Shown in pieces: positions 25,491 to 57,266 of a stretch of 64,000 nucleotides of DNA. Made by a program: the position numbers and the translations under genes. The stretch is taken from positions 2,274,001 to 2,338,000 of the forward strand of contig NC_025260.1 of NCBI RefSeq assembly GCF_000740895.1. The letters are read 5' to 3'. The notes beneath the pieces were generated by a model. That model saw nothing but the letters and a program-made list of their open reading frames with translations. It made no database searches and was not told the origin of the DNA. Within the stretch, counting starts at the first letter, position 1, and every line of letters starts with the position of its first letter. Source of the stretch: Theileria orientalis strain Shintoku. Lineage: Eukaryota; Apicomplexa; Aconoidasida; Piroplasmida; Theileriidae.

Positions 25491-26212
25491 ATGTGGATAT
25501 GCTCCAGAGTCAGAAAGGGGAACAGTTTGGGGTCCCTGAGGCACATAAGAATATACGGCACGAGATATAAGATAGAAAAGATACAAAAGCTGTGCGAAAA
25601 CTTCGAGAAGGCGTGCTGGAGGAGCGTGAGAATAGCAGAGGAGAAGGCGTATCTGCAGAAGTACCATTTTCTGAAGCACTGCTTGACTCTGATAAAGCTA
25701 TATAGACAAAAGGGGCTAGAAGCATTCTCAGCCATTAAACCGGGCCAAGATACGTGTAAAATATCGGATTTGATACTGAATATGTACGACGGGACTAATT
25801 CTAGGGAGTGCTTGGCGTTTGCGACGACGATACTAGAAAAGGTGGAGCCTTCCACGGACAAGGTAAGCAAACTGTATAATAAACAAGGTAGTCTTTACAC
25901 ATCTAGGTTAAATATTGTCTAAATTACGTGTGAAATATAGCACTTGCGAATAAGCTGATATATAGTGTGAAATCAAACTTTGTTACTCAGGATTCCATTG
26001 ATGAAGTTTCTGAGAAAGCAGGGGGCAATGTGTATAAAAGCCAATTGATTAAAAAAATAAATCTAAAGTCGATAAGTGGTAAGGATATGGATAAAATAAA
26101 GGACATAGTTACTACATTAAAAAAAAGAGTGAAGTTGGAAGAAGACCACGGCAGAAGCCCTGAGGTGCTGGGCTACACGAAAGCAGAGTTGGAGAAGATG
26201 ATTGGCCTATAG
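25491..26212 (+). CDS. Unknown helical protein, possibly mitochondrial
   Basis: Two exons. Splicing is ambiguous: donor at 25888 with acceptor before 25941 gives 222 aa; the stronger-looking GTAAGC donor at 25863 with an acceptor before 25955 gives 209 aa. Both keep the frame. The N-terminus is Arg-rich with few acidic residues (SRVRKGNSLGSLRHIRIYG), resembling a mitochondrial presequence. The rest is helical and Lys-rich, without a motif I recognise. Its stop codon overlaps the stop of the convergent Myb gene within the palindrome CTATAG (26207-26212). Confidence 0.7.
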
Positions 26213-27405
26213 CGTGCACTCGGGCAGAATGTTGTTCTTGATGCAACGAAGAACGTTCTTGTCGTGGAGCTTCCAGTGCTTAACCTCAAGCTCACTGTAG
26301 CCGAACTTGATGATGTTCCTGATGTACTTGTTGGAAAAAATACGACCCAGATTTTTAGGGTTAATCTTCTTCAGCTCCTCGACTTCGGCAGCGGAGAGCT
26401 CGGAGTCGATGAAGAGACGCTGAGAGCGAGCAGCGTAAACCTGGTACTTCCTAATAATCTTGGAAAGGGCCCTCCGAGTGCAGTGCGTAGTGTAAATCAC
26501 AGGGAGCATGGGAAACTTGGACTTGAAGTCGATGTCCTTGAGAGAACGAAGCCTCTCAGAGTTGGGGCGCTTGAGAAGCTTGCGAATCCAGCGAATGGTG
26601 AGCCGAGAAACGAGCTTCCCGCTGAACTCAGGGTAAACCTTGCGGTAAACCTTGGGGAGCAGAGACATGTTGAAGTGAATGCGGAGCTTCGAGGTGGAGT
26701 AGCCGGGAAACTTCTCCTGGACCTTGGACCAGGGGATCTTCTCAAGGGAAGCCAGGCGGCGCGTGTTGAGCATGAGCGAGCGAATGTAGTCGTAGATTTC
26801 CTGCTGGTGCTCGCTGATGTCGGAGACGCGGCTGACGCCCTCAGCGTCGTCGTCCTCGACGCCGGGAGGGCTGCGATTAATGGTGGCGATCTTGGAGACC
26901 TTGTCGGAGTCAGAGAGGTTCGGGTCAGTGACGAGGGCGCGGTAGTTGTGAATGAAGGGCTTAATCTCGCGGAACTTGTCGTGCACCTGCTCCGGAGAGC
27001 GGTTGAGGACCCGGGAGACGGCCTTCCAGCTGTTGCCCTCGTAGGAGCCCGAGAGGAAGAACGACTTGAGGAGGATGAGGAGCTCGTAGTCGCTCCACTT
27101 GCCGGCCTTGTGGGAGAGCAGGTGCCTCCGGTAGTAGCTGTAGACCGAGCGCGAGTGGCGGTCGGGGAGAACCTTTTTGCCGATGAGAGTGAGGATGGAG
27201 GGGCTCTTGCCGCGCTTCGAGATGAGTTTGCTTATGGCGTCCTCGCGAGAACAGTCGAAGTTCTCCGAAATGAACTTGTCAATGGCAGCATCCAAAATTT
27301 CCTTCTCTTCCTTGGTGAACTTGCCCTGGAAAAGGTAAAAGGAGTGGAACTTACCGTTTTTTGTAACTTGTTTGCAGTATTTTTATTTTGTTTTCGGGAA
27401 GACAT
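26207..27405 (-). CDS. Myb/SANT DNA-binding protein, REB1/TTF1-like
   Basis: Exons 27405-27355 and 27325-26207 (29-nt intron) give 389 aa. Myb-like repeats occur in order: KFTKEEKEILDAAIDKF, then a segment with LPDRHSRSVYSYYRRHL, then AGKWSDYELLILLKSF...GNSWKAVSRVLNRSPEQVHDKFR. This arrangement, with the 'CSREDAI' helix and the RSxxSxYxRxxR motif, is that of REB1 and mammalian TTF1, which bind DNA and stop or position RNA polymerase I. More divergent SANT-like repeats follow (WSKVQEKFPGYSTSKLRIHF, then WIRKLLKR). A role in rDNA termination or general transcription is inferred. The gene is divergent from the RAP gene (150-bp spacer). Confidence 0.82.
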
Positions 27406-27555
27406 GCCCTAACACATATATTGAGTGCACGAAGAAAAACAATAGACTGATTTATTGTACTTGCGTGTGTGTATACAGTAACTACGAGAATATATATTAA
27501 GTGATCTTGTAGACATAATCACTACACCCACAACAAAACGAAACTATGTGAAAGT

Positions 27556-39839: not shown

Positions 39840-42800
39840 ATGAGACTTATATTAATATTCATTGTTTGTGTAATTTTACAAAAAGACATAAATCATGTAA
39901 GAAGGAAGAAAAAATAGTAAAAGTATAGGTAATATCAGAGGCGACAAGCTTAAGTGACCTACAAAGTCAAGTAAGTGGAAAAATTGGTGTAAAATTAATG
40001 TAGAATGAAGATGTTCTGTCCAAGAGCCAAGAAGAAGCCTATAAATATACGGCAAATAAAGTTCTGAAAAACAGAGAACTAACATTTAAAATAAAAAAAT
40101 GGTTAAGAAATGAGAAGGTAACATTCCTAGTGAAAAAGAATGAACTCGAATCAGGTAGAAATGTTATGAAATAAATAAGAGTATAGAGAACAACTATTCT
40201 AGAACGCAAATATGGGCGAATATGTTCTGTAACATGAATAATAACACGGTAAAGCACTCAGCAAGGTTCAGGCCGGAACAGAAAAATATAGGATTTTACT
40301 GTGTTGAGAATTTTGATCTAGACCACTCGATCTACGCAGAAGAATGTTTAAGTAACTGTGGAAAACTCGTTTTTTGCAAAGGAGGAGTTAAATCACTGAC
40401 CAGAAAAAGGCAGTTCTCGTTTCATTTAGTAAGGGAACAGATTAAATTAAATTGCAGTAAGTGTTGATAATTATATTGAGTGTCGTAGAGGAATCACAGT
40501 TGCAAGAATCGCTCCAGGAATCATGTAAATTTGATCAAATTCCAAGGGTTGACGGTCACTCAAACGTCAAGTGCTACTCAGTTAAAACAATGAATTATGG
40601 TTTAAACGGAAAATGCCTTGATGATTGTAGAAATATAGTCGATTGTTTAGGAGCTCCAGATCCCTCAGATAAAGGAGAATTGGTTAATATTGAAAGTATA
40701 GACTGGGATGCACTAACAAACGGATGCCGTAAGTTTATATAAAAATGTAAACGATAAAATGAATTCAGCGTGTTCTGAAGATTATGATGCTCATACTTTT
40801 GCTTATCAAGGCTGCCAAAACTTTTCAAAATCGGATAAAAAGTGCCTGAATTGGTCGGAAGGGATGACATCTGGCTACTATTTATATGAAAAGAGATTTG
40901 CGTTCCCAGAAAACTATTGTAGGCAGATCGACAAAACGCAAGAAATTTACTGCTTAACGGCGAGCAACAAGACCTCAAGGTGTTTGCCGAAAGGTATGTG
41001 CCAGAACGAAGCATAGTGATTTTAGAAATTCCTGAGATAAAGGTCCAGTCGGGAATAATGTTTGATATTTGGATAACGCCATACATACCGAGGTATAAGT
41101 TGAAGATAATATTCATTGACCACTCTTCAACGTGCGGGGATCAGTTTGCAGCTGTACATCAGAACATAGTTCAGTCCTACGAACTAGAAGTGTTCAACAT
41201 GATCAGGGGCAATGGAACCATGAACCAGGAGAATGATTTGTTTGAGTACTCAGATCCACCGATTTATGAACCGTCATACGTGTTCAAAGGGTATACTGCC
41301 CTTGATGGAATTTCGTCGGAGTCAAAAATATGTGCGTGTATGCATAGCAACTATTATGATAATGCCAACGGAATAGAAAACCCATGTATAAATAAGAAGC
41401 ATTATAGAATAACGGTAGGAGTGCTGATAGTACAAGGTAGGAGTTGAAAATAAAATAATGTATAATAGGTGATTTTGTGCCAAATCCGGTAGAGGAAATG
41501 ACGGATGAGGTAGTGTTGGACAGGAATTTGGGTTTAAATGGCATTGTGTCTTTGGTGAATGAGGCTGATGCGGTAGTGTGTAGGAATAACGAACAGTTAA
41601 ATTTTGAAACTTGTTCTAGATCTATCGATGCACTATTGGATATAGAAATGGCCAATAGAACGCAAAAATCATATATGCCCGAAATGGATAGAAGACCTCA
41701 GTCTAAGTATACTCATCAGATGATTGCAAGAAAGGATATACAACCTAATCATAATGTGTATTTTCACATTGAAAAGGCAGGATCATACTCATTCGTGGAT
41801 CAGAACATAAAGGACACAAATAACCCATTAATAAAGTACAGAGTCAGCCTTCAAGGTTAGTTTTAAGAAATAAACAGTATTGATTTTAGGATTTTATTCC
41901 AACAAAACTTTTACACTAATTTATGATAAGGACAAAGGAGACAATTATAGAGAGCAGTCGTTGTTCTTTGAAAGCTGGAAGGTCAACATGCCTCCAGTCG
42001 GTGTTATAATATCGAAATATAGCTCACCGCAAGAAGTTTGTGAAAAGCCATTTGCGTACTCGATAAATATATTCCCAGTGGTGAATAGTGTAATAGATAA
42101 ATCCTTAACTTTGTGGAGAGCTTCAGACTTTGAAATTACAAAAAGGTTGACCATTATGCAAGAAAAGCCCGAAAGGTTCCAAGTGTGTGCATTTACAGAG
42201 GATTCCAAATTACACAAATTAGGATCTGGTATCTTTGTGGATTTCATCAATCACGAAGTGAGCGAAATAATGGCAGGGCCAGAAATAACAGTGCCAAACG
42301 ATGTGTTTAACTATAAAATATACGACGAATGGGATCTTATAACATTCTTAATTGGCATAAAAGAAGATGAAAATTTCGAAATGTTACATTCCTTGCATAA
42401 AAATTTTACAGTGAAAAAGGATTACACCCATTTCGCTAAATTCGTGAATAGTTTTAAAACGATGGAGAATTTAAATCCTGACACTGTTCTTAAAAAAAGC
42501 AAAAATCATAAAAACGATTACCCTGCAATATTGAGTTTTTGGTCCTACCCAGATGAGAATGTAGTAAGGATGTTTCTTTTCAGGCCGAATAGAGTATCAC
42601 CGACATATATTGGTAGTATAGAAGTAAACTCGCCGATAGCATTTGGAATTTATATTACAATGAACAAACTGGTGGGAATAGTGTTGAATGAAGGTGAATT
42701 TGGAATAAACATGTATGAAATTGAATTGGATAGAACCGCTCAAGAAAAAAATAAATTTAATTTGAAACTTATGAAAACGAGCTGCGATATTGGAAGTGAG

Positions 42801-45800
42801 TTTTGTACAAAACTGGTCTCACCAGTAGATATGAAGTTGATTAGCTACTTCGATGATTGCGTAAATCGTCATTTGATAATAGTGACGGATATTGGATTGA
42901 ACTGTATAATACTTTACAACTCTACGCTGACTGAAGTTTCTAAATTGTGCAGACAAGATGGTCATAAAAATATATTTGAACCTTCTCAAATTTCGTGTAC
43001 AGACTCTCGATTTGATGTGGGTCAGTGTATCAATACTTTTGAGGAATTTGGATTTGAATCTGATGAAGAAAGGGGCCATGTAAACTGTTTTATTACTCAA
43101 CCGCATGGAGGAAGTATATTGTGGGTTCAAGTCGATGTGTTTGCTCAACGTTTAACTTTGCTAGATACCTATGGTAATGGCGATATGAGTGAAAACAAAA
43201 AGGATACAGAAGAAGATGAAACCAGAATCTCACAGTATACGTTGATTAGGCCCATAACTGTCGAAACGGTTTTATACGCAAATACAGTTTTAATATATGT
43301 TATAGAATCAGAAAACCCAGCTCTGATATTACTAATCATTGATTTGAATAGTGAAGCTAAAAAAATAACATATTATAGTAAAACTGAACTTAAGATGATA
43401 TCATATGGAAATTTCATACACATTTCTAAACTGTTGATGAGTGTTCAAAACGATGAAAGACTTAACGACCAGGACTATATAATGCTATTTAGACTTGGAG
43501 TGAGGAAAAAGTATAACAAGGAAATGGAAACATTAACTATTGTTAATGTAATGGATACCATTTCAATTAACAATTTTGAATATACGATCCCAGAATGGAT
43601 TGTAATCGGAGATGAGATAAATTTAACACCAAAAATTGACTCCGGTAACAAACAAAATTTAATTAGATATGAATTGGACATATTAAATCTTGAAGATGAG
43701 GTTGATTCTAAAAATAAAAATCACAAACACTTGGAATATGTGAACAGAAATTTTGATTGGACGGGAAACGCAACTCACAAAAATACCATAAAAATAAATG
43801 AGAAGACTGGGGAAATTAACATAAAATTAAAATATATTCACGGGTTTCATCTTTCAATAAGAGTTACTGCTTTCGGATTTATCGAATCTAGGTCGACAGT
43901 TTTATCATTTAATGTTGTGTGTAAAGACGGCCATTATTACAGCCATAACGAAAATGATCAAACACCTAATGAGTCTAACGGATGTAAGATTTGTGAAAGA
44001 GGGGAGTACAATTCTATTCAAATGATAAAGGATGATTTTACTAATTGGTCTAAGTGCACAAAATGCCCTGATAGGCAAACTACAATAAGCGAAGGGGCTA
44101 CATCTGGTACTCAGTGTCTATGTGCTCCAGGCTATGAGCCTTCTGCAGACCTTCTCATTCCCTGCTCACCTTGCGAACCAGGAAAATGGAAGAGCTCTGT
44201 GGGATTTCAGCCTTGTATTGGAAATGGTTGCTACAAAAATTCATATTCTAACAAAACAGCCAGTGTTTCAGAGGAAGATAGAGATTGCTCATGCCATGAA
44301 GGGTACTATTACGTGGATCACGCCGGAGGTATAAAGGAATGCATACCTTGTGAGACCGGATATTTTTGTCCCGGAGGAATTAAAGGACGCAAAATCAAAT
44401 GTCCTTCAAACACTACAACAGTAATTGATGTTCTTTCTAATGGGCTTACAAATAGTTTGCCCAAATCCTTGAGCCAATGCGTGTGTAAAAAAGGTTATGA
44501 AATAGTTAGTTTGTTTAAATTGGTCAATCGAAAAAACCCAGAATATAAATTAAAGAAAAGAATAGAAAAGGAAATTAGCATGATGAATCTTCAAAATCAA
44601 AATATAAATGTGAATAGAATGGTTTGTATACCCTGCGGTCACAAAAGTTATAATGATAATGAGGGAAACAAAAGATGTACAAAATGCCCAGACCATACAT
44701 TCAGTGAATCAATGAGCCCTGTCAGTAAAAAGGAATGTAACATGTGTGATGAAGGTTACTATGAAAGTGAAAGTAAAAATAGCGTCTGTGAAAAATGTGA
44801 AGAAAATCACTTTTGCGTAGGATCAAGCCCAATGAGTGACAAAGATAAGCTATACGCGAAGAAAAAAATACCATGTCCAGAGAATTCTAAGAGTGTTGAA
44901 CCTTTTGAAATGAATGTTAGTATGTTGAATTGTTTGTGTGTTGAGGGTTATGTTCCTGTGATAACTGGTTCATTGTTGAAATGTACTCAGGCTCCGAGGG
45001 ATTATTATAAGGACTTTGTTGGTAACAGGGATGCGATTCCTTGTCCGAATGGTTCAATGACTTTGTCGACTGGTGCCACATCTAGGGACTCGTGTGTATG
45101 TGAGAGAGGTACATACTTTGATGTGATAACTCAACATTGTACGATATGTCCTATTGGAAAATACTGTATGGGTGGAAAGGATGATCAGATGAATCATAGA
45201 CAACCAATGGATTGTGCAGATAGTAATGCTTTAACAAAGACTACTGGTGCATCATCGATATCAGAGTGTGCTTGTAAGCCAGGATACTATATGGATAAAG
45301 ATTCAAACAACATATGTAAGGAGTGTCCAGAAAATCATTACAAATCATATGTATCAAATGATTTATGTACAAAGTGTGATGAGAATTCATCAACAAGTGG
45401 GAAGAAGGGTTCCACATCAAAGGAACAATGTGTGTGTGATCCTGGTTATTATTTTGACAATGGATGTGTATCATGTAACTTCAATGATAGATATTGTCCA
45501 GGTGGTGTAATAGAAATAAAAGATAATAAAGGAGCAATTAAAATAGTAACACAAACACCAATAAAATGTCCTCCGAATACTGAGATTACACCAGGAGTTG
45601 ATAATGCTAGTTCAATTAAATTTTGTAAGTGTAAAAAGGGGTACTCATTTGTATCTGAAGACGATGTCATGAACACGAAGAAATGTGCTCCATGTTCACC
45701 AGGTACATACAAAAGCTCAGTCATGGACTCAAGTTGTAATGGTCTATGTACTCAGAATGCTACCAGTCTGAATGGTGCAGTGAGTTCTAATCAATGTTTC

Positions 45801-48694
45801 TGTAGATCCGGTTATTACTATCTTGAAGGTGGTGTCTGTAGTAAGTGTATGGAAGGTGCCATGTGTGAAGGAGGTTTAATAGATAAAACTAATAGTAGTG
45901 GTAATGATAACAATAATACGGCTAGTGGTAATGATAACAATAATACGGCTAGTGGTAATGATAACAATAATACGGCTAGTGGTAATGATAACAATAATAC
46001 GGCTAGTGGTAATGAAATTGTTGATTTGACTAATGCGAGTAACTCAAATACTCCTGTTGGTACTGATATGATTAACACTGGTAATAATATAAACAATTTA
46101 ATTGTCGATATTGATGACCATGTTAAACCTATTGCCGTTGAAGGTTATTATCTTGATAAGATTAATCTAAAGTTAAGAAAGTCTGATGATTGGAAGTTTA
46201 TTAAATGTCCAATTAAGGGTTCATGTCTCGGTAATGATAAATGTTCATCTTCTATGGAACATTATTTATGTAGTGAATGTAAGATGGGTTATACGAACAA
46301 TTTTGTTAAAGGAGTTTTGTGTCAACAGTGTCCAAATATGTTTATAAACATATCATTAACAATGATTTATGGACTTGGATTGTTATTAATTAACATTGTT
46401 ATGGCTTGTCTTAATATAAGTGCAGGTTTTAATCGTAGATCTATACATTCGGTTGTTATTAAGATTGCGCTGAACTATGCAATATGTACATCAGTCATTA
46501 ATGTTATTAATTTTGCTGAACTTAAAATACCAATGGGCCTAAGTAGAATAACAAATTCATTTACAAAAGTATTTGATTCAGAAGATGTTGTTTATTACAC
46601 ATCGATCGATTGTCTGATTCGTAAGTTTTTGAAAGTGAACCATGCTGATTCACTGTTCTATGTCACATTGTATACAGTATTTCTACCTATCATCTTATTA
46701 TTTGTTGTTACAATGTTAATGTGGGTTATTCTTAGTATATTTAAGGTTAGGAAATATAATGACACTAGAACAAAGTTAGCTCTGTTACAACAAGCTGAAA
46801 TTCAGGGTATGCATAAAATATCAGAAAAATTAAGAGAACAATATGAGAACGAAAGATTGTTAATGATATTCAGATATATTCCACTACCTAATCAGACAAT
46901 ATGGCTCAAGTTTAGAAACTTTATAGAAGATATGATTCCGATTTATGTGACTGTACTTTTCTCAGTACATGGAAAGATAACAAGTAGGATGTTAAGTCTA
47001 TTGGATTGTAGTTACATTGACCTAGGACGTTCATTTCCTGGCAAATATATGTTGAGACCTGCAATGAGTATTAAATGTTCATTATATCCATCCGATGGTT
47101 ATATCAAATATTTAATATTAGGTTTGAGTGGACTAGTTATTTGGGGATTTGGTATACCATTCCTTTCGTTCACTGTGTTATACACTAATCGCAAAAACTT
47201 ATATGCTACCAGCATTAGAATGAAATATGGTTTTTTACACAATGGATTCAGACAAGATTACTGGTATTGGGAAACTATTGTTTTTACCAGAAAGTGTTTA
47301 GTTCTTGTAATTGGTAGCATTGTTATAGTACCATCTCAGAACTACAGTGGATCAAGAATATGGATGGCATTAGTTGTAGCAATCATATTTTTAATTGTAC
47401 AACTAATATACAAACCCTTCGACGAAAGGTAATTGTTTATAATATTTAATCCTATTTATTAATACTAGACATTGCAATTTGTAATAATACATAATACTAT
47501 CAACTATAATATTCACATAAACTACACCTAATAATAATACTGATCATAATTAACTAACTAATAATAACAATTAGAGACTATTTCGTACTAGGAAGACTTG
47601 AGAACCATAGTATGATAGCCTGGACATTTACACTCATACTCTTCTCAATCATCATCGAATCAAATTTTAATCCACTTTACAACATCACTATCATTTTATT
47701 TATAATTATTCTGAATTCTGCTTTTATTTTAGAAGTTGTTTTTCAACTTCTTGTTGCCTACTCTCACAATCTTCGTATTCAAGTTAAAAAAACCGATTCT
47801 CTATTATATCGGTTTATTTATGGTAATCTGATTAAATTATCTTCTAAAATCAAAAGCTCTGAACCGATTATATCGTTTGACACCGTAACGTGTTCAACGA
47901 ATCTTAAATCACCAGTTACTATAATTGATAAGTTCAACAGGTTTTATGCAATAACATATCATGACAAACAATATTTTTCACATGTCATGACTGAAATTGT
48001 TTGTTTTGCAAATGTTAGAATGGAATTGGATGTGATTCCTTGCGATTTTCCAGAATTTATCACAAGGTTGACCTTTGCAGTTCATGTTAATGAAACAGAA
48101 AGGCAAAATACTGAAAATTTGGTCAAATCGTTTGCCGATGGAAACATCGATAAGCTAGTTAACTTATCATTTATTAACAAAAGTTACACAAATAATTTTA
48201 ATTATTCTGGTGAAGATAAGGATGGATTTAAAGAATCGGAGGTTATTGTTAACCCTGCCATGTTGTTTGATAAACAGGTGCTATCCAGTGGGATACCTCT
48301 TTCAGACTTTTATATGGCTTTTTCGATTATTAAATTGAATGAATTTAAAATAATTGCTAACACATATGTACATTTCAAAGAGTTGAAAATTAAGGAAAAG
48401 GCAAAAAGCATAGAATATGAGACTAAAAAACTAAACGATTTATCAGAAATAGAAAAAATGTTGGATGATCGTAGTAAGTTACCAAAAGATGTTGAGGAGG
48501 TATTTTGTTCTAAGGAAGAGCTGGACGAGTTAAATCAAAAGGTGCGCATCTTAGAGGAGAAGATACACATGTTCAAAAACGACCCACTGAGAGCACTTAA
48601 GGTCTACAAATCAGAGGATTATTCACATTTGGACATAGGGGACTTTGGAACTGACATTGTCAACTTTGGATTCAAGAAAAGGACGTATGATTAG
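39840..48694 (+). CDS. CRMP-like cysteine-repeat (GCC2/GCC3) multi-pass membrane protein, copy A
   Basis: Ten exons splice in phase to 2813 aa: 39840-39896, 39929-39970, 40004-40154, 40187-40456, 40489-40728, 40769-40993, 41026-41436, 41469-41855, 41890-47428, 47575-48694. A signal peptide (MRLILIFIVCVIL) opens it. The N-terminal third is a Cys-containing ectodomain without an obvious family; residues ~1310-2050 hold about ten GCC2/GCC3 (ephrin-receptor-like) modules of the form C.PG.Y......C..C. About nine membrane segments follow, the last two in exon 10, and then a cytoplasmic coiled coil. This is the layout of apicomplexan cysteine repeat modular proteins; in Toxoplasma and Plasmodium members act in rhoptry discharge or sporozoite entry. 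That function is inferred here. Residues ~1590-2472 lie in the inverted repeat shared with copy B. Confidence 0.85.
44874..47669 (+). repeat. Left arm of 2,796-bp inverted repeat
   Basis: Every position x pairs with 97551-x on the other strand over the whole stretch, with no indel: exon ends, shadow ORFs and a start-like ATG all obey this sum. Left border: TGTCCAG is shared and the base before it differs. Right border: the shared stretch ends at CAAATTTTA (47669), with A versus G next. The arm covers ~883 codons of the Cys-rich and membrane region plus the whole 146-nt intron 47429-47574. Confidence 0.93.
45900..46007 (+). repeat. 27-bp coding minisatellite x4 (copy A)
   Basis: Four exact copies of a 27-bp unit beginning GGTAATGATAACAATAATAC encode GNDNNNTAS repeats, an Asn/Ser-rich linker between the last Cys module and the first membrane segment. 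The same number of copies occurs in copy B. Confidence 0.95.
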
Positions 48695-48742
48695 GTTTAA
48701 ATAACAAGTATGATAATAATGAATATATATATTATTTTGGAG
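48695..48742. other. 48-bp spacer between convergent CRMP-like genes
   Basis: Only 48 A/T-rich bases separate the TAG of copy A from the stop of copy B, so their 3' UTRs must overlap. It is the centre of the inverted-repeat region but is not itself palindromic. Confidence 0.7.
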
Positions 48743-51700
48743 TCATTCAAAGTCATCCGGGTTCACCTCGGTAATGAACTCCGAGCGCTCATGCGATTCA
48801 AATCCCAGGTCCTGGATCATGTCCCCGAACCTACTCTCACTATTATCATTCATGGCTCCTTCCTTGTTAACGTTTAACAGGATGTTGTCGTGTTCTTTTT
48901 TAAATTTGAACTCCATAGCATCAAGCTCCTTTAGTTGTTCTATGTACTCAACCTTTTTAACCTTCAGAACATTTACCTCATCCATGAGTTTATCAACTGA
49001 ACGTTTCAGCTCTTCTCCATGACTCCCATCTATTCTCCTCATTTGCAATTCACTTTTAATTTTATTCAAGTTGTTAAGTTTCTCTTCCATCTCCTGACTT
49101 TCCTTTCTCTCAAAGTAGAATTTAAAGTGTTTAAAAAGAGCATATAGGAGGCTTAGTGCTTTTTTGTCTAGATTGGCCAACTTCTCAATCGACCTGAACA
49201 GGTCTGAGAGGAATAAGTCATTTATTAAAATGTCGTCATCGAATAATGAGTTAACTATTGCGTTTATCTCCTTGTCATCAAACCCGAACCTAAAGAGTTT
49301 TTTTTGAATGGCAGGGACGTAATGATCGGATGGGTTATCCTTCTTATACTTCTTAAGGTTAATAAATTTGTTTAGGTTGTTATAGTTGTCCGTAGTCACG
49401 TGAACAATTAGTTTAGACAAATTCCCCCCTGAGAACTCATTAAACAAACACTTTTCCAATATTTTGTTTTCTACGTTTGCCATTGAAATTGAATACCTTA
49501 TTAAAAACTCTATAAGCATTGAAGGGATAACATCTAGCTTTATTTCATGAACCGCAATGGTATATAAATTACTGATTGAGTTCACCAAATAGTTCAAGTG
49601 GTCATACGTAAGGTTCTTATCAGATTTGGTTAATCTCAATCTTTTGGTTTTGGGCTTAAGTGTTATGACTTCATTTGTTTGGTCATATGATACAAATGGC
49701 TGATTTGAATAGAGGATGTGAGAGGCCTTGATGTATGTGAAATTGGCTTTAGAAAAGTGTTCGTTGATCAGAAATATTGCATTAGAATAGAAAGAGATTA
49801 TAAAGAAAAATAAAACCTCCAGTACAAATAAAACGTTAAGGATGACGATAACCGTAAAAAGAAAAAAGTTGACTATAGGACTAAAATTTGATTCGATGAT
49901 GATTGAGAAGAGTATGAGTGTAAATGTCCAGGCTATCATACTATGGTTCTCAAGTCTTCCTAGTACGAAATAGTCTCTAATTGTTATTATTAGTTAGTTA
50001 ATTATGATCAGTATTATTATTAGGTGTAGTTTATGTGAATATTATAGTTGATAGTATTATGTATTATTACAAATTGCAATGTCTAGTATTAATAAATAGG
50101 ATTAAATATTATAAACAATTACCTTTCGTCGAAGGGTTTGTATATTAGTTGTACAATTAAAAATATGATTGCTACAACTAATGCCATCCATATTCTTGAT
50201 CCACTGTAGTTCTGAGATGGTACTATAACAATGCTACCAATTACAAGAACTAAACACTTTCTGGTAAAAACAATAGTTTCCCAATACCAGTAATCTTGTC
50301 TGAATCCATTGTGTAAAAAACCATATTTCATTCTAATGCTGGTAGCATATAAGTTTTTGCGATTAGTGTATAACACAGTGAACGAAAGGAATGGTATACC
50401 AAATCCCCAAATAACTAGTCCACTCAAACCTAATATTAAATATTTGATATAACCATCGGATGGATATAATGAACATTTAATACTCATTGCAGGTCTCAAC
50501 ATATATTTGCCAGGAAATGAACGTCCTAGGTCAATGTAACTACAATCCAATAGACTTAACATCCTACTTGTTATCTTTCCATGTACTGAGAAAAGTACAG
50601 TCACATAAATCGGAATCATATCTTCTATAAAGTTTCTAAACTTGAGCCATATTGTCTGATTAGGTAGTGGAATATATCTGAATATCATTAACAATCTTTC
50701 GTTCTCATATTGTTCTCTTAATTTTTCTGATATTTTATGCATACCCTGAATTTCAGCTTGTTGTAACAGAGCTAGCTTTGTTCTAGTGTCATTATATTTC
50801 CTAACCTTAAATATACTAAGAATAACCCACATTAACATTGTAACAACAAATAATAAGATGATAGGTAGAAATACTGTATACAATGTGACATAGAACAGTG
50901 AATCAGCATGGTTCACTTTCAAAAACTTACGAATCAGACAATCGATCGATGTGTAATAAACAACATCTTCTGAATCAAATACTTTTGTAAATGAATTTGT
51001 TATTCTACTTAGGCCCATTGGTATTTTAAGTTCAGCAAAATTAATAACATTAATGACTGATGTACATATTGCATAGTTCAGCGCAATCTTAATAACAACC
51101 GAATGTATAGATCTACGATTAAAACCTGCACTTATATTAAGACAAGCCATAACAATGTTAATTAATAACAATCCAAGTCCATAAATCATTGTTAATGATA
51201 TGTTTATAAACATATTTGGACACTGTTGACACAAAACTCCTTTAACAAAATTGTTCGTATAACCCATCTTACATTCACTACATAAATAATGTTCCATAGA
51301 AGATGAACATTTATCATTACCGAGACATGAACCCTTAATTGGACATTTAATAAACTTCCAATCATCAGACTTTCTTAACTTTAGATTAATCTTATCAAGA
51401 TAATAACCTTCAACGGCAATAGGTTTAACATGGTCATCAATATCGACAATTAAATTGTTTATATTATTACCAGTGTTAATCATATCAGTACCAACAGGAG
51501 TATTTGAGTTACTCGCATTAGTCAAATCAACAATTTCATTACCACTAGCCGTATTATTGTTATCATTACCACTAGCCGTATTATTGTTATCATTACCACT
51601 AGCCGTATTATTGTTATCATTACCACTAGCCGTATTATTGTTATCATTACCACTACTATTAGTTTTATCTATTAAACCTCCTTCACACATGGCACCTTCC

Positions 51701-54700
51701 ATACACTTACTACAGACACCACCTTCAAGATAGTAATAACCGGATCTACAGAAACATTGATTAGAACTCACTGCACCATTCAGACTGGTAGCATTCTGAG
51801 TACATAGACCATTACAACTTGAGTCCATGACTGAGCTTTTGTATGTACCTGGTGAACATGGAGCACATTTCTTCGTGTTCATGACATCGTCTTCAGATAC
51901 AAATGAGTACCCCTTTTTACACTTACAAAATTTAATTGAACTAGCATTATCAACTCCTGGTGTAATCTCAGTATTCGGAGGACATTTTATTGGTGTTTGT
52001 GTTACTATTTTAATTGCTCCTTTATTATCTTTTATTTCTATTACACCACCTGGACAATATCTATCATTGAAGTTACATGATACACATCCATTGTCAAAAT
52101 AATAACCAGGATCACACACACATTGTTCCTTTGATGTGGAACCCTTCTTCCCACTTGTTGATGAATTCTCATCACACTTTGTACATAAATCATTTGATAC
52201 ATATGATTTGTAATGATTTTCTGGACACTCCTTACATATGTTGTTTGAATCTTTATCCATATAGTATCCTGGCTTACAAGCACACTCTGATATCGATGAT
52301 GCACCAGTAGTCTTTGTTAAAGCATTACTATCTGCACAATCCATTGGTTGTCTATGATTCATCTGATCATCCTTTCCACCCATACAGTATTTGCCAATAG
52401 GACATATCGTACAATGTTGAGTTATCACATCAAAGTATGTACCTCTCTCACATACACACGAGTCCCTAGATGTGGCACCAGTCGACAAAGTCATTGAACC
52501 ATTCGGACAAGGAATCGCATCCCTGTTACCAACAAAGTCCTTATAATAATCCCTCGGAGCCTGAGTACATTTCAACAATGAACCAGTTATCACAGGAACA
52601 TAACCCTCAACACACAAACAATTCAACATACTAACATTCATTTCAAAAGGTTCAACACTCTTAGAATTCTCTGGACACCTTTCCATCTTTCCTTCATACT
52701 TTTTGTTTACTCTTTCCTTAGCGTTTGATCCCACGCAGTACATATTTTCTCTGCATTTTCTACATGGCTCATCCTCTAGGCCTGTTTCATAATATCCAGG
52801 ATTACATTTACTGCAGTCTGATTTCTTTTGGCTACCATTTTCTCCAGTGTATGAGTTTATTGGACATTCAGTGCAACTATCGTTTGATTCTGTATCTTTG
52901 TATTTATTTTTTGGACACGGTTTACATTTTAATGTATCAGATTGACTTCTAAATCCTTGTTCCTTTTGGATTAGTGAAACTTGAGATCCCTCTAGTACCG
53001 GTTCACATCCCATCATACACACACATTTATCCTGGTCGTTTGATCCTGGTTGAGAGGTCATGTTCTCTGGGCATTTGTTTCTATTTGACTTGAATCCGCC
53101 GAGGCAGAAGTACCCCTTTTCACATTCAACGCATTCGTTTATGCCTTGATCGTGTCCTCCCCAATAGTATCCCGGCAAACTATTCAATTATGAGTTGTTA
53201 TTTCCATACCATTCGCATCTTCGTTCCTCTTCACTCTTGCTCCCTATAACTTTCGTTTCAGAGTTTTTGTAACATGATCCAATACATGGTTCTGAACCCA
53301 CCGTCGACTTGTATGTTCCTATTTACATATTTAGTTCTGTTTAATAAGCTGTATATACATAATAATTATCGCTCTTGTGTACGCAAGTATATATGCGTAT
53401 ATATGTACCTGGTGGGCATGGTTCACATATTTCTAAAGATGTTACAGGGTCTATTACAACTGTCGAACCCTTGTCACAAGTACAATCTTCCAAAGAGCTA
53501 GAGCCCTCCCTCCTTGTAATCTTGTTTTCTGGACACTTGGTACACTTTGGCCAATCACTTCCATCTCTCGGGTTCATCGACACAGAGTAGTAATAACCCA
53601 CTGGGCACTGTAGACAAGAGCTTCCGTCATAGTATTCTCCATCTCTGCAGCTGAAATTTATGTCTAAATCTATTTTGTCCTCAACTGCCAGGATACTTGC
53701 TACTATGGTCAGCTTTAGCCTTCTGACCTTAATCTCGTTCACTGTTATGCTCAGCTCTCCAGTCAACCTATCAATTGCAAACGTATTTTTCACATATCCA
53801 TTCAGGTCCTCATAGTTTCCTATGTGATACGTTATCATCTTTTTGAAACGTTCATATTCCATGAACTGTGGAGCCAACCTTAGCGAATCCTTGTACACTA
53901 TGTTTTCAGGTATGTTATAGCTGAAGTCTGGGATCTGTAGTATTGACTCTAGGGGAGCCCATGTCAGCACCCATTTTATATTGTCTTCGTCTCTCACTCT
54001 TTCAAATATGTCTTGTATATCGTTTCCTTTTTTCAGAGGGTAGTTTATGTAATGCTCCCTTATTATCATCAATTTGTGTTCAGTAGGTCCATTGTATGTT
54101 GGACATATCCTTTTAACTCTACTATATCCTGGAAGATTACTCAGCGTGGTCACAAAGTGTATTTTTTTAGTGGCAACGTCAGGTAGGAGAATCGCCCAGA
54201 ACTCCGGATTTTCCTAAAATCAATTTAATTGCAACAAGACTTACCCTTATTATGAACAACAGTGTTGTATCTATCTTAGAGTCGTTGTACACGTAGGACT
54301 CTACTGACGATATTGATCCCAAATGTGGATCCAAATCATCTGCCACTGTGCCTGTCAGATAGTTAGACACGTAACTCAGTTCCTCCTTCCCTATGTCCAC
54401 TGACAGCCATATTATCATGTCCGTTGTGTTCTCTACTACAAAGCAATTAAATATCTTAGAGCCCTTCTGACTCGCTGAGCACGTTATTGATAATGGGTTC
54501 ACAAGAGCCGTGTTTTCTATGTTGTTGCAAATCGACTTTATGTGCCTCAGCTCAGAGTCCAACATCACTATGCACGAACTCGAGGAGTCGATCAGCACTA
54601 TCTTTACGAGGTCCTCCTGCTGAAGAACCTCAAAGTCCATTGGGTGGTACAATATTATGTCATTGAATACTACGTCTCTTCTCAGCTCATACCTTTCCAC

Positions 54701-57266
54701 TATGTTGTCCACGTCGTACCTCACTAGCAACCTCTTCGAGTCCATCAGAACGTACCAGTACACCTTTTTTGACGTTACTACCATCCTCATCTTTGAGGGT
54801 GAGTCTATTGTCACATCGTAAATCGGCAGTAACAATGTTTCCTCCTCATTTGCAACACTCATGCTTATTCTATTTTTGCCCTTGTAGACCTCAAAGTGTA
54901 CCATCTTTTTAAAGTACTTGTCAACAAATCCCTCATTGGAATTTAAGTCTCCTACTTGATGGGAACCAACTCTCCTCCTCTCATTTAACCTCTTAAACTG
55001 TTCACGCCATGATTCGAACTTTTCCAAATTATTGGTAGCGTAGAATATGTACATATCGTCCGGTTGCACTTGGTCTATGTCTACTGGCTTATTAAGCGTG
55101 TGTATTCTATAATCCTTATATTCCCTTTCCGATAGTAGTCCCACTGCGTATTTACCTTCTAAATTTGTGTATTTTACACAGATCAAATTTTCATCCAGTA
55201 CTGCGTCCTCTTTTAAAAATCTAAACTCGTCGTATATCAGATACTTTTGTTCGTGTGATGCACTCAGTGTATTATATCTATACTTCCTTCCACTCCACTC
55301 ACCGACCGACTCACCATCGCATGACTTTTTGGAGTCTACTACGAATATAGACTCTATGTATTCTGCTTCAATTCCTACTGTCTCTACTAAAATCCCATCT
55401 ACAATTCTTTTGCCCTTCGAGTCCTTATATGCGATAGCGTCAATGTTGTTTTTAACTCCTATTTAATTTATATGCTTTTAATGAGATAACTAACCCTTTA
55501 CTCTATATCCCTGTTCACTCGTTTCTATCATTGCATCATTCTTTCCTACCAAACATACGCAAAACTTTCCTGCTACGTCTCCTCTAAATGTTACTGTTCT
55601 ATTATCCTCGCTGTTCTCTCCCATAACAAAGTACTTCGATAAACTCGGGAGATCTTCAACTGTATAATCATTCCAATCCACCTTGTAGAGATCAAAAAGT
55701 TTTGTGCAATCTTCATCTATGACCCAAGATTCGACCATAAATGCTATTTGATCCTGTACACTGACGTTTATAGGTTTACCGGAGTCAGAATCTTGAAAAC
55801 TAACAGTTTTCTTTTCTAAAAATCGTTGTTTCCCTATATATACTTTACCTCTTATTACCACTTCTCCGATTTCTATGTCATAGTCACTCTTTCTGACACA
55901 CGAGTATATTTTGTTTGTCTTTGTGTAACTGGAGCAAGCACATATTTTGAGTTTCTTTGTTTCGGTGTACGGCCCAAATGGGCCCAAATGAAACACCCTT
56001 CTTGGAGTCAACGTTATTTCCTTCAGGATAGTAACTTGCAGGAATTTCACCTTCTCTATTTCAGGATGCTCATTTGCAGCCTGTCCACATTTCCTACCTT
56101 CTTCCTCTAAATAGACCGAATATACGTTTGACAGGTTGAAATCTTCAAAATTCATCTCAAACGCCTCATTCTTGTATCTATAGTACCTCGTTTTTACTAA
56201 ATTAAGTTGATTTTCATTCTTAATTTACCAAATTTACACAGCTTATACTCATCCTTTAAGTTACATGACTCCAGCTCTCCTACGCATTGCGACGATGAGA
56301 TATCCACTCCATGTCTCTTTTCAAAAGTCTTGAAGTACCAGCATTTTTCATCAGTAAAATTTTGTGCCGGTGTGTCATCTAAACAATTGAATTTACTTTT
56401 AACTCACTTATGTTCCTCTTTGTTGTTTTATTGTAGTAGTAAAGGTCAGAATGAATGTACCTCACTGGGTTAACATTAAAGGTATTCAGTATGTTCGTAA
56501 CCCTGGTGTCCCCTAACCTAACCTTTTTATCAATGTAAGGGTCTAAGTCATATTATTAAGTTTTGAAATAACCTATGTTACTATCATTTAGATTAATATT
56601 TTTGGCTTCCGTTATTGTTCTTTCTTCATATTTCCATGAATCATCAGCTCGACATATATTATTATCATTGAATATTTCAATTGACTCTAGTGTGTATTCC
56701 CTGTTCTCAAAGCTTGCTCCTCTACAGTCTGTCAATTCATCTCCGTATAGGCATGCCGTAGAAACTCCTGTTCCGGATAACGCCTTTTTAATACATTTGC
56801 AATTTGTTTTATTATTCTTGCATCTCAACAATGACCCAGAGTATGTTCTTTTGCAATGCAAGTCGCCAAAATACTGTCTCAAAGTGATTGGATATATTTT
56901 GCCTATATGAATATGTAATTGGCTCATTACTGACTCTTGATTTTATAACTTTTGGGCTTATAAGTCTTATTTTTTTCCAGCTCCTGTTCCAGAAATAAAC
57001 CTTTTAATCGAACCCATGCTACAAATTAAGTTTATAAACCAGAATTATTTATATTAATTTGTTCCGGTTTTATAATTTTTATACCTTCAATTTCAGGTGC
57101 ATCACTGGCCTACACATACATTACTTATTCAAATTTTAGATTATCAAAATATTATAAATAAATAATTAAATCGTTAAAGACAACGAACTGGAATATTTAC
57201 TGACGATTGAGCATATTTACTTCCAAAAACAGTAAATATATATATGGCTTTGACCAAACCGATCAT
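48743..57266 (-). CDS. CRMP-like cysteine-repeat (GCC2/GCC3) multi-pass membrane protein, copy B
   Basis: Twelve exons (minus strand) splice to 2626 aa: 57266-57201, 57109-57085, 57018-56935, 56902-56573, 56512-56408, 56378-56229, 56196-55495, 55458-54245, 54213-53409, 53318-53210, 53179-50123, 49976-48743. Exon 1 encodes a signal peptide (MIGLVKAIYIFTVFGSKYAQ). The order matches copy A: Cys-containing ectodomain, GCC2/GCC3 modules, about nine membrane segments, cytoplasmic coiled coil ending EVNPDDFE. The ectodomain and the tail have diverged strongly from copy A, but residues ~1365-2247 look identical to it. Two introns in the Cys region (53319-53408 and 53180-53209) and one at 54214-54244 are absent from copy A. 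The first three exons are the least certain; the donor of exon 3 is GTCAGT. A role in host-cell entry is inferred from the family. Confidence 0.82.
49882..52677 (-). repeat. Right arm of 2,796-bp inverted repeat
   Basis: Reverse complement of 44874-47669 with no difference seen in the stretches compared base by base (both borders, the intron 49977-50122 against 47429-47574, the minisatellite) and with identical translations in all frames checked. The arms are separated by 2,212 bp holding the two divergent last exons. Confidence 0.93.
51544..51651 (-). repeat. 27-bp coding minisatellite x4 (copy B)
   Basis: Mirror of 45900-46007: the same unit, the same four copies, the same flanks. Minisatellites change copy number quickly, so equal arrays argue that the two arms were homogenised recently. 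Confidence 0.95.

What the first reader, a model, noticed from the sequence alone, without database searches (positions are those of the whole stretch)
44874..52677. Two convergent CRMP-like genes joined by a 2.8-kb inverted repeat with no visible difference
Seen: arms 44874-47669 and 49882-52677 pair base for base (positions sum to 97551) without indel, including a 146-nt intron and a four-copy minisatellite. Outside the arms both genes differ strongly in protein and intron content. Known: introns and minisatellites drift fast, so identity across them implies very recent exchange. Inference: gene conversion keeps the Cys-repeat and membrane core of two family members the same while ectodomain and tail diversify. 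This would be a way to swap ligand-binding ectodomains on one conserved membrane core.
Basis: partly seen in the sequence, partly recalled or inferred. Interest (0 to 1): 0.88.

Follow-up and report, generated by a model that had tools for sequence, protein, structure and literature searches.

The report
Gene pair sharing one membrane core
Two neighbouring invasion-receptor genes in a cattle blood parasite keep copying the same membrane-spanning middle section from one to the other while their outer and inner ends stay different, and related parasites do the same, each with its own version of the shared section.

Summary
The inverted repeat is real: arms 44874-47669 and 49882-52677 match at 2794 of 2796 positions without indels. 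They are not "base for base": two differences exist, both silent. The arms lie inside two convergent CRMP-family genes of Theileria orientalis Shintoku whose ectodomains are 21% and tails 25% identical.

Eleven within-species gene pairs (3 T. orientalis genotypes, 8 other piroplasms) show recurrent gene conversion. Ectodomains and tails group by gene, so the duplication predates the Theileria/Babesia split. The membrane core groups by species. Paralogue-shared versus orthologue-shared sites are 8395:62 in the core and 374:4561 in the ectodomain. The core rejects the gene-wise tree (p-AU 5e-5). In the transmembrane block the copies are sisters in 10 of 10 testable pairs. This genome's other CRMP pair, same strand, is not homogenised (core about 25%).

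"Swapping ectodomains" is not supported: 22 of 23 readable ectodomain-tail combinations are parental. One T. annulata protein joins a B ectodomain to an A tail.

Singer 2023 noted the identical central sequence as a conserved duplication; conversion was not named in the passages seen. Closest known case: TLR1/TLR6.

The parts
40016..48694 (+). Gene A (P0001, labelled TOT_010001343 of T. orientalis Shintoku), CRMP1/2-type; stop 48692-48694
   Evidence: Exact peptide mapping of P0001 in pieces over 40019-48691, start from tblastn; name
48743..57019 (-). Gene B (P0015, labelled TOT_010000987), convergent CRMP1/2-type paralogue; its first five residues were not mapped
   Evidence: Exact peptide mapping of P0015 from residue 6 to 2365, in pieces
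44874..47669 (+). Left arm, inside gene A: late Cys-rich repeats to the end of the last-but-one hydrophobic segment
   Evidence: 2794/2796 identical to the right arm, no indel; hydropathy
49882..52677 (-). Right arm, inside gene B
   Evidence: Same
47429..47574 (+). 146-nt GT-AG intron inside left arm; mirror image 49977-50122 in gene B; identical, so the exchange is of DNA and not through a spliced cDNA
45896..46003 (+). Four 27-nt in-frame repeats; mirror image 51548-51655. The Goon Nure proteins both carry another, shared sequence there
46734..47626 (+). Block P0001 2118-2366 (end of third to start of last-but-one hydrophobic segment), homogenised in each of the 10 pairs that could be tested; mirror in B 49925-50817
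   Evidence: coordinates from the exon map
40016..44873 (+). Ectodomain-coding part of gene A outside the arm, diverged
   Evidence: 21.4% protein identity to B
52678..57019 (-). Ectodomain-coding part of gene B outside the arm, diverged
47670..48694 (+). Last hydrophobic segment and cytosolic tail of A, diverged
   Evidence: 24.6% protein identity to B
48743..49881 (-). Last hydrophobic segment and cytosolic tail of B, diverged
48695..48742 (.). 48 nt between the two stop codons: the genes converge almost end to end

Best explanation
Two convergent CRMP1/CRMP2-type genes, duplicated before Theileria and Babesia separated, undergo repeated gene conversion confined to the segment that encodes the last Cys-rich repeats and most of the multi-pass membrane core. 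Shown: in each lineage the two cores are re-made alike, with lineage-specific residues, while ectodomain and tail evolve as old, separate genes. Inferred: inverted neighbours pair during repair and one core is copied onto the other, mostly without net crossover. Conversions that spill into ectodomain or tail are removed by selection because the two genes serve different stages (in B. bovis the A-type gene in tick stages, the B-type gene in blood). The shared core is therefore a common membrane module of the rhoptry-discharge complex carrying two stage-specific sets of ends. Whether sameness of the core is itself selected, or only tolerated, is not shown. The confidence given is for recurrent conversion; for the shared-module function it is about 0.5.
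For: Core identity within species is 94.7-99.9% in the 6 pairs of Theileria and B. duncani and 69-93% in 5 Babesia pairs; ectodomains are 18-22% in the 10 pairs that can be measured. Trees: core by species, ectodomain and tail by gene. AU test rejects the gene-wise tree for the core (dlnL 3535, p 5.1e-5) and for the membrane block (dlnL 593, p 1.7e-7). Site patterns 8395:62 in the core vs 374:4561 in the ectodomain over 55 comparisons of two pairs. Block 2118-2366: own A-B identity 95.6-100% and above the nearest same-gene protein of the other genomes in the set, single-member species included, in 10 of 10 testable pairs. At DNA level in the window, 541 synonymous sites plus 146 intron bases carry 2 differences, dS 0.0037, although the cores of T. 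orientalis genotypes differ from each other (28 paralogue-shared differences, Shintoku vs Goon Nure). Controls: the second, same-strand CRMP pair of this genome has cores of about 25% identity and no blastn match; P. berghei CRMP1 vs P. vivax CRMP2 cores are 37%, and CRMP genes of P. berghei and P. falciparum lie on different chromosomes (PMC9815656 passage). Stage data: BBOV_III011730 is up 761-fold in kinetes, BBOV_III011740 5.6-fold in blood stages (PMC9806345 passage). P0010 is matched to the former because its tail holds the published antibody peptide.
Against: Only proteins were available for the other genomes, so silent sites and introns could be checked in the window alone. Homogenisation is patchy in Babesia: over the upper core (1575-1985) own A-B identity does not exceed the nearest same-gene protein in B. 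bovis (74.4 vs 75.4 and 77.3), B. caballi (63.6 vs 65.8 for B) and B. ovata (80.8 vs 87.2 for A, B. bigemina), and over the lower core (1985-2370) it fails in B. caballi (74.9 vs 89.9). The B. ovata A core groups with B. bigemina A over the whole core. The two T. annulata proteins may come from different isolates. Orientation of the pair in other species was not seen; one paper says the B. bovis genes are 'in tandem'. If the CRMP3/4-type partners differ as much as in this genome (about 25%), a shared partner does not simply explain why one core is kept. Shintoku's own reads could not be examined.
Confidence: 0.9

Rival explanations
1. Conversion is real but is a neutral by-product of a nearby inverted repeat: the core is functionally interchangeable, so conversion is merely tolerated there, and only the ends are under selection to differ.
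For: Outer limits of the identical runs wander between lineages (left 1557-1841, right 2301-2411 in P0001 numbering, T. annulata to the stop, Fish Creek model truncated). The same-strand pair of this genome and the Plasmodium copies compared are not homogenised.
Against: Persistence of the same membrane block in 10 of 10 testable pairs is more than a passive relic would readily give, but does not prove benefit.
Confidence: 0.4
2. Inversion switch: crossover between the arms flips 47670-49881 and exchanges the tails between the two ectodomains, giving two orientation isomers in populations.
For: Geometry: both products stay in frame because the arms include the same intron and frame. T. annulata P0014 is B ectodomain plus A tail; holding its tail with the B tails is rejected (dlnL 28.8, p-AU 0.004).
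Against: 22 of 23 readable ectodomain-tail combinations are parental. T. annulata P0004 has A ectodomain plus A tail, which fits a long conversion if both are in one genome. No A ectodomain with B tail is in the set, though cluster members at 90% identity are hidden. Assembly error through the repeat is possible.
Confidence: 0.1
3. Relic of one old duplication kept alike by purifying selection alone, without conversion (the duplication reading of the Singer 2023 passage, taken alone).
For: The core is well conserved across the family: 40 homologues are 40-97% identical to the window fragment 46200-47426.
Against: Within-species identity goes with between-species difference: 8395 paralogue-shared versus 62 orthologue-shared sites. 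Intron and nearly all synonymous sites are also identical in the window.
Confidence: 0.01
4. Assembly duplication or recent local duplication restricted to the Shintoku genome.
For: Arms are 99.93% identical.
Against: Distinct ectodomains and tails with orthologues in other species on both sides. The MACJ and MACK genomes carry both genes with their own core version; these are, as I recall the prefixes, Fish Creek and Goon Nure, assembled from Nanopore plus Illumina reads (PMC9323827 passages). The arms differ at two bases.
Confidence: 0.02

Closest known systems
TLR1/TLR6 gene conversion in mammals (Kruithof 2007, PMC2077338; abstract and first part of Discussion read)
   Same: Neighbouring receptor paralogues; a TM-containing block homogenised independently in many species with near-constant boundaries; ligand-binding part and extreme C-terminus escape; members of heterodimers.
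   Different: TLR1/6 are in tandem and span mammals. Here the genes converge (seen in T. orientalis), the core is a multi-pass membrane domain, the pair is stage-specific in B. bovis and the span is Theileria to Babesia. TLR1/6 share one partner (TLR2); here the candidate partners are two divergent genes.
EMR2 with CD97 and EMR3 (cited in the Discussion of PMC2077338; original not read)
   Same: Adjacent, oppositely oriented multi-pass receptors with conversion confined to regions of the gene; EMR2 has a seven-span membrane region most like that of EMR3.
   Different: Three genes making a chimera; EGF region also converted.
CD300A/CD300C paired immune receptors (PMC12447643, abstract read)
   Same: Conversion between receptor paralogues that keeps one domain alike while another end differs.
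   Different: Mirror image: there the extracellular domain is kept alike and signalling differs.
Singer 2023 statement on T. annulata and B. bovis CRMP1/CRMP2 (PMC9815656, passages read)
   Same: By name and adjacency the same locus: neighbouring genes with an identical central DNA sequence.
   Different: Read there as a conserved duplication before the species split; conversion and lineage-specific versions were not mentioned in the passages seen.

Membership tests
Cysteine repeat modular proteins (CRMP), CRMP1/2 (CRMPA) clade | Cys-rich GCC2/GCC3 = Ephrin_rec_like (PF07699) modules | tested here: met
   P0001 E 2.4e-31, P0015 E 2.8e-29
Cysteine repeat modular proteins (CRMP), CRMP1/2 (CRMPA) clade | Sequence relation to Plasmodium CRMP1/CRMP2 and coccidian kringle-bearing CRMP rather than to the CRMP3/4 side | tested here: met
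   Gene A C-terminal part 38% to PbCRMP1, 34% to PvCRMP2, 41% to Hammondia P0025, but 22-23% to the second pair of this genome
Cysteine repeat modular proteins (CRMP), CRMP1/2 (CRMPA) clade | About nine membrane segments near the C-terminus | tested here: inconclusive
   Eight separate hydropathy peaks above 1.5 between 1992 and 2404; AlphaFold model of part of the core helical, mean pLDDT 69
Cysteine repeat modular proteins (CRMP), CRMP1/2 (CRMPA) clade | Kringle domain (present in Toxoplasma CRMPA; not used to define the clade) | tested here: not met
   No PF00051 at E 0.001 in P0001, P0015 or P0014
Cysteine repeat modular proteins (CRMP), CRMP1/2 (CRMPA) clade | Role in rhoptry discharge | not testable with these tools
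   Shown for Toxoplasma CRMPs (PMC9815656, PMC9670195 passages)
Domain-restricted recurrent gene conversion (TLR1/TLR6 kind) | Neighbouring paralogues | tested here: met
   48 nt between stop codons in the window; consecutive locus tags for B. bovis in print
Domain-restricted recurrent gene conversion (TLR1/TLR6 kind) | Block where paralogues are closer than orthologues, in several lineages independently | tested here: met
Domain-restricted recurrent gene conversion (TLR1/TLR6 kind) | Flanking domains closer to orthologues | tested here: met
   Ectodomain and tail trees; T. annulata tail is the exception
Domain-restricted recurrent gene conversion (TLR1/TLR6 kind) | Identity at silent and intron DNA sites | tested here: met
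   Window only; DNA of other species not held
Inversion switch | Both orientations present in one species | tested here: inconclusive
   Only T. annulata P0014 vs P0004 hints at it
Inversion switch | Dedicated recombinase or short recombination sites | not tested
   -

The most novel reading that the evidence does not exclude
The inverted core is an exchange hub of the invasion receptor. Conversion keeps one membrane module for both stages, and occasional crossover between the arms flips the 2.2-kb centre and re-pairs ectodomains with cytosolic tails, as T. annulata P0014 may record. Since A and B cores are the same, the membrane interface cannot be what sorts the A and B receptors to their two divergent CRMP3/4-type partners; that must come from the ends or from stage timing.
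Probability: 0.12. Interest if true: 0.82.

Novelty: new member of a known kind. Interest (0 to 1): 0.62.

Why it matters
CRMPs belong to the complex that triggers rhoptry discharge in Toxoplasma, a step needed for host-cell invasion. The data show that in the piroplasms examined the A and B receptors share a membrane core, re-copied in each lineage, under ends that stay different (and, in B. bovis, are used in different stages). This separates what is common (membrane module) from what is specific (ectodomain, tail). It also puts a limit on the published idea that the membrane domains specify which CRMPs pair. It warns annotators and primer or antibody designers that core-directed reagents cannot tell the two genes apart, and it adds a deep, protist case to the domain-restricted conversion systems.

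Tried and rejected
Assembly artefact or strain-specific duplication: rejected, because the flanks have orthologues in other species and two further T. orientalis genomes carry both genes with their own cores. Purifying selection alone: rejected by site patterns and silent identity. Copying through spliced RNA: rejected because the intron is shared.

A search for B partners with the P0015 ectodomain gave 6 proteins, only one of them (P0058) new. A search with P0058 for the second pair gave 6: P0058 itself, GDP4-like proteins of B. bigemina and B. divergens, one unnamed protein and two far relatives, so the second pair could be used as a control only in this genome. Whether T. annulata P0004 and P0014 come from one genome could not be settled: P0004 is listed without a contig, and clusters hide their members; in 9 of the other 10 pairs both members are listed on a contig of the same length (B. 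bovis lists none). PDB comparison of the core model gave nothing at E <= 0.001. The T. orientalis proteome paper has no hit for the six terms tried. No T. parva A, B. bigemina B or B. sp. Xinjiang A protein came up in the three protein searches, so these species give no pair.

Paper searches that bear on conversion at this locus: "cysteine repeat modular protein" + "gene conversion" (2 papers: PMC4583173 read only at its CRMP passage, PMC8115857 seen only in the listing); "Theileria orientalis" + genome + "gene conversion" (listing only); "concerted evolution" + Theileria + Babesia (listing only); "Theileria annulata" + CRMP + rhoptry (listing, plus passages of PMC9806345 and PMC9815656). None was seen to report it; full texts were not read through.

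Full report
What is there. The window is G000:C1:2274001-2338000 of a 9,010,364-bp, 6-contig genome. Contig C1 is 2,746,313 bp long, the contig length listed for P0001 and P0015 of T. orientalis strain Shintoku. The two arms match at 2794 of 2796 positions without indel; both differences are silent. They include a 146-nt GT-AG intron and four 27-nt repeats. Outside them identity drops to background on the left (65-72%) and just above it on the right (73-75%), against random pairs of mean 67%, maximum 72.5%. A 169-base query over the intron found two places in the genome, the two arms.

The genes. Gene A runs + from 40016 to 48694 and gene B runs - down to 48743, with 48 nt between the stop codons. 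Both carry Ephrin_rec_like (GCC2/GCC3) modules and DUF7630. They resemble Plasmodium CRMP1/CRMP2 and a kringle-bearing coccidian CRMP more than the second CRMP pair of this genome. The arm begins in the late Cys-rich repeats and ends at the close of the last-but-one hydrophobic segment, so the last segment and the cytosolic tail lie outside.

Comparison across piroplasms. A protein search returned the pair, or one member, for T. orientalis (three genotypes; the assignment of MACJ to Fish Creek and MACK to Goon Nure is recalled), T. annulata, T. equi, T. parva, B. duncani, B. gibsoni, B. ovis, B. ovata, B. bovis, B. bigemina, B. caballi and B. sp. Xinjiang. Eleven gave both members; T. parva, B. 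bigemina and B. sp. Xinjiang gave one each. The two T. annulata proteins may stem from different isolates. Core identity between the two members (P0001 numbering 1575-2370) was Shintoku 644/648, Fish Creek 287/303 (truncated model), Goon Nure 726/727, T. annulata 789/792, T. equi 790/791, B. duncani 770/787, B. gibsoni 713/795, B. ovis 740/793, B. ovata 684/792, B. bovis 690/799 and B. caballi 507/733. Ectodomains were 18-22% in 10 of 11 (B. ovata not measurable). Tails were 19-28% in 9 of 11; Fish Creek was not measurable and T. annulata was 99%.

Trees. The ectodomain separates A from B with support 100/100, with Theileria and Babesia on both sides (23 rows). The core groups the two members of one species: 10 of 11 pairs in the quick tree (the exception is B. 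ovata, whose A core sits with B. bigemina A), and 8 of 9 in the careful tree (B. caballi unresolved). Forcing the A proteins together costs 3535 log units (p-AU 5.1e-5). In the membrane block 2118-2366 all 10 testable pairs are sisters or identical, and forcing A together costs 593 log units (p-AU 1.7e-7).

Block identities. In block 2118-2366 own A-B identity is 95.6-100%, above the nearest same-gene protein of every other genome in the set in 10 of 10 pairs (a first version without the single-member species was). Over the upper core (1575-1985) this holds in 8 of 11 pairs and fails for B. bovis (74.4 against 75.4 and 77.3), for B against B in B. caballi (63.6 against 65.8) and for A against A in B. 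ovata (80.8 against 87.2 in B. bigemina). Over the lower core (1985-2370) it holds in 9 of 10 and fails for B. caballi (74.9 against 89.9). Homogenisation of the upper core is therefore patchy in Babesia.

Site counts. Over all 55 comparisons of two pairs, sites with A=B within each pair but different between pairs number 8395 in the core, 374 in the ectodomain and 353 in the tail. Sites with A=A and B=B across pairs but different between genes number 62, 4561 and 1462. Comparisons with T. annulata contribute 242 of the 353 tail sites.

Age of the last exchange. The arm has about 541 synonymous sites plus 146 intron bases and two differences: dS 0.0037, or 0.0029 over silent sites with intron, 95% upper bound 0.0105. 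The cores of Shintoku and Goon Nure differ at 28 paralogue-shared residues, so each genotype has homogenised its pair since they parted. Where Shintoku has the four-copy repeat, both Goon Nure proteins carry another, shared sequence.

Controls. The second CRMP pair of this genome (C1 about 860-880 kb, both on the - strand) has cores of about 25% identity and no blastn match to each other. P. berghei CRMP1 and P. vivax CRMP2 have cores of 37%; in P. berghei and P. falciparum the CRMP genes lie on different chromosomes (PMC9815656 passage). In these controls homogenisation is a property of this locus and not of the fold; other species' second pairs could not be tested.

Function. Toxoplasma CRMPA and CRMPB form a complex needed for rhoptry discharge; published models pair the CRMP1/2 side with the CRMP3/4 side through the membrane domains (PMC9815656 passages). 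In B. bovis the A-type gene (BBOV_III011730; matched to P0010 by the antibody peptide in its tail) rises 761-fold in kinetes, and the B-type gene (BBOV_III011740) 5.6-fold in blood stages; in B. bigemina the values for BBBOND_0404220 and BBBOND_0404210 are 137-fold and 1.8-fold (PMC9806345 passage). That P0022 is BBOV_III011740 is inferred from its UniProt number next to P0010's. The best reading is one membrane module with two stage-specific sets of ends. Because A and B cores are the same, the membrane interface cannot by itself sort A and B to different partners; this is inference.

Swapping. Crossover between the arms would flip 47670-49881 and exchange tails, leaving both genes in frame. 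Of 23 proteins in which ectodomain and tail can both be assigned (12 A, 11 B), 22 are parental. T. annulata P0014 has a B ectodomain and an A tail; placing its tail among B tails is rejected (p-AU 0.004). It may be an inverted isomer, a conversion running to the stop codon, or an assembly error. I could not decide.

Prior knowledge. Singer 2023 states that in T. annulata and B. [quoted passage not shown] The sequences here agree with the old duplication but show that each lineage has its own version of the core. TLR1/TLR6 is the closest described case (abstract and part of the Discussion). Hence: a new member of a known kind, in an invasion receptor and reaching from Theileria to Babesia.

Limits. 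DNA was available only for the window's genome. Gene orientation elsewhere is unknown, and one paper calls the B. bovis genes "in tandem". The AlphaFold model of part of the core is of middling confidence (mean pLDDT 69.4) and has no PDB match at E <= 0.001.

Noticed in passing
50800-50880, 51334-51708, 52441-52656 (- strand): The annotated gene B protein of Shintoku leaves out three stretches of 81, 375 and 216 nt of the open core, all multiples of three; one removes the third hydrophobic segment. The same DNA in gene A is annotated as exon apart from one 180-nt stretch. Goon Nure B omits the 216- and 81-nt stretches too. Probably annotation, but stage-specific splicing is not excluded.
   Followed up: partly
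T. annulata proteins P0014 and P0004: P0014 joins a B-type ectodomain to an A-type tail, 99% identical to the tail of P0004: tail exchange, long conversion or assembly inversion.
   Followed up: partly
G000:C1:859899-879673: Second CRMP pair (CRMP3/4 side) of the genome, both on the - strand, not homogenised; one member is somewhat closer to BboGDP4 (30% against 26%).
   Followed up: partly
48695-48742: Only 48 nt separate the two convergent stop codons, so the 3' untranslated regions overlap or are very short.
   Followed up: no
26207-27412: Two long open frames (391 and 399 aa) overlap almost completely on opposite strands.
   Followed up: no
T. parva (P0016): Only the B-type protein of T. 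parva came up, in a shortened model; no A-type was found in the searches.
   Followed up: no
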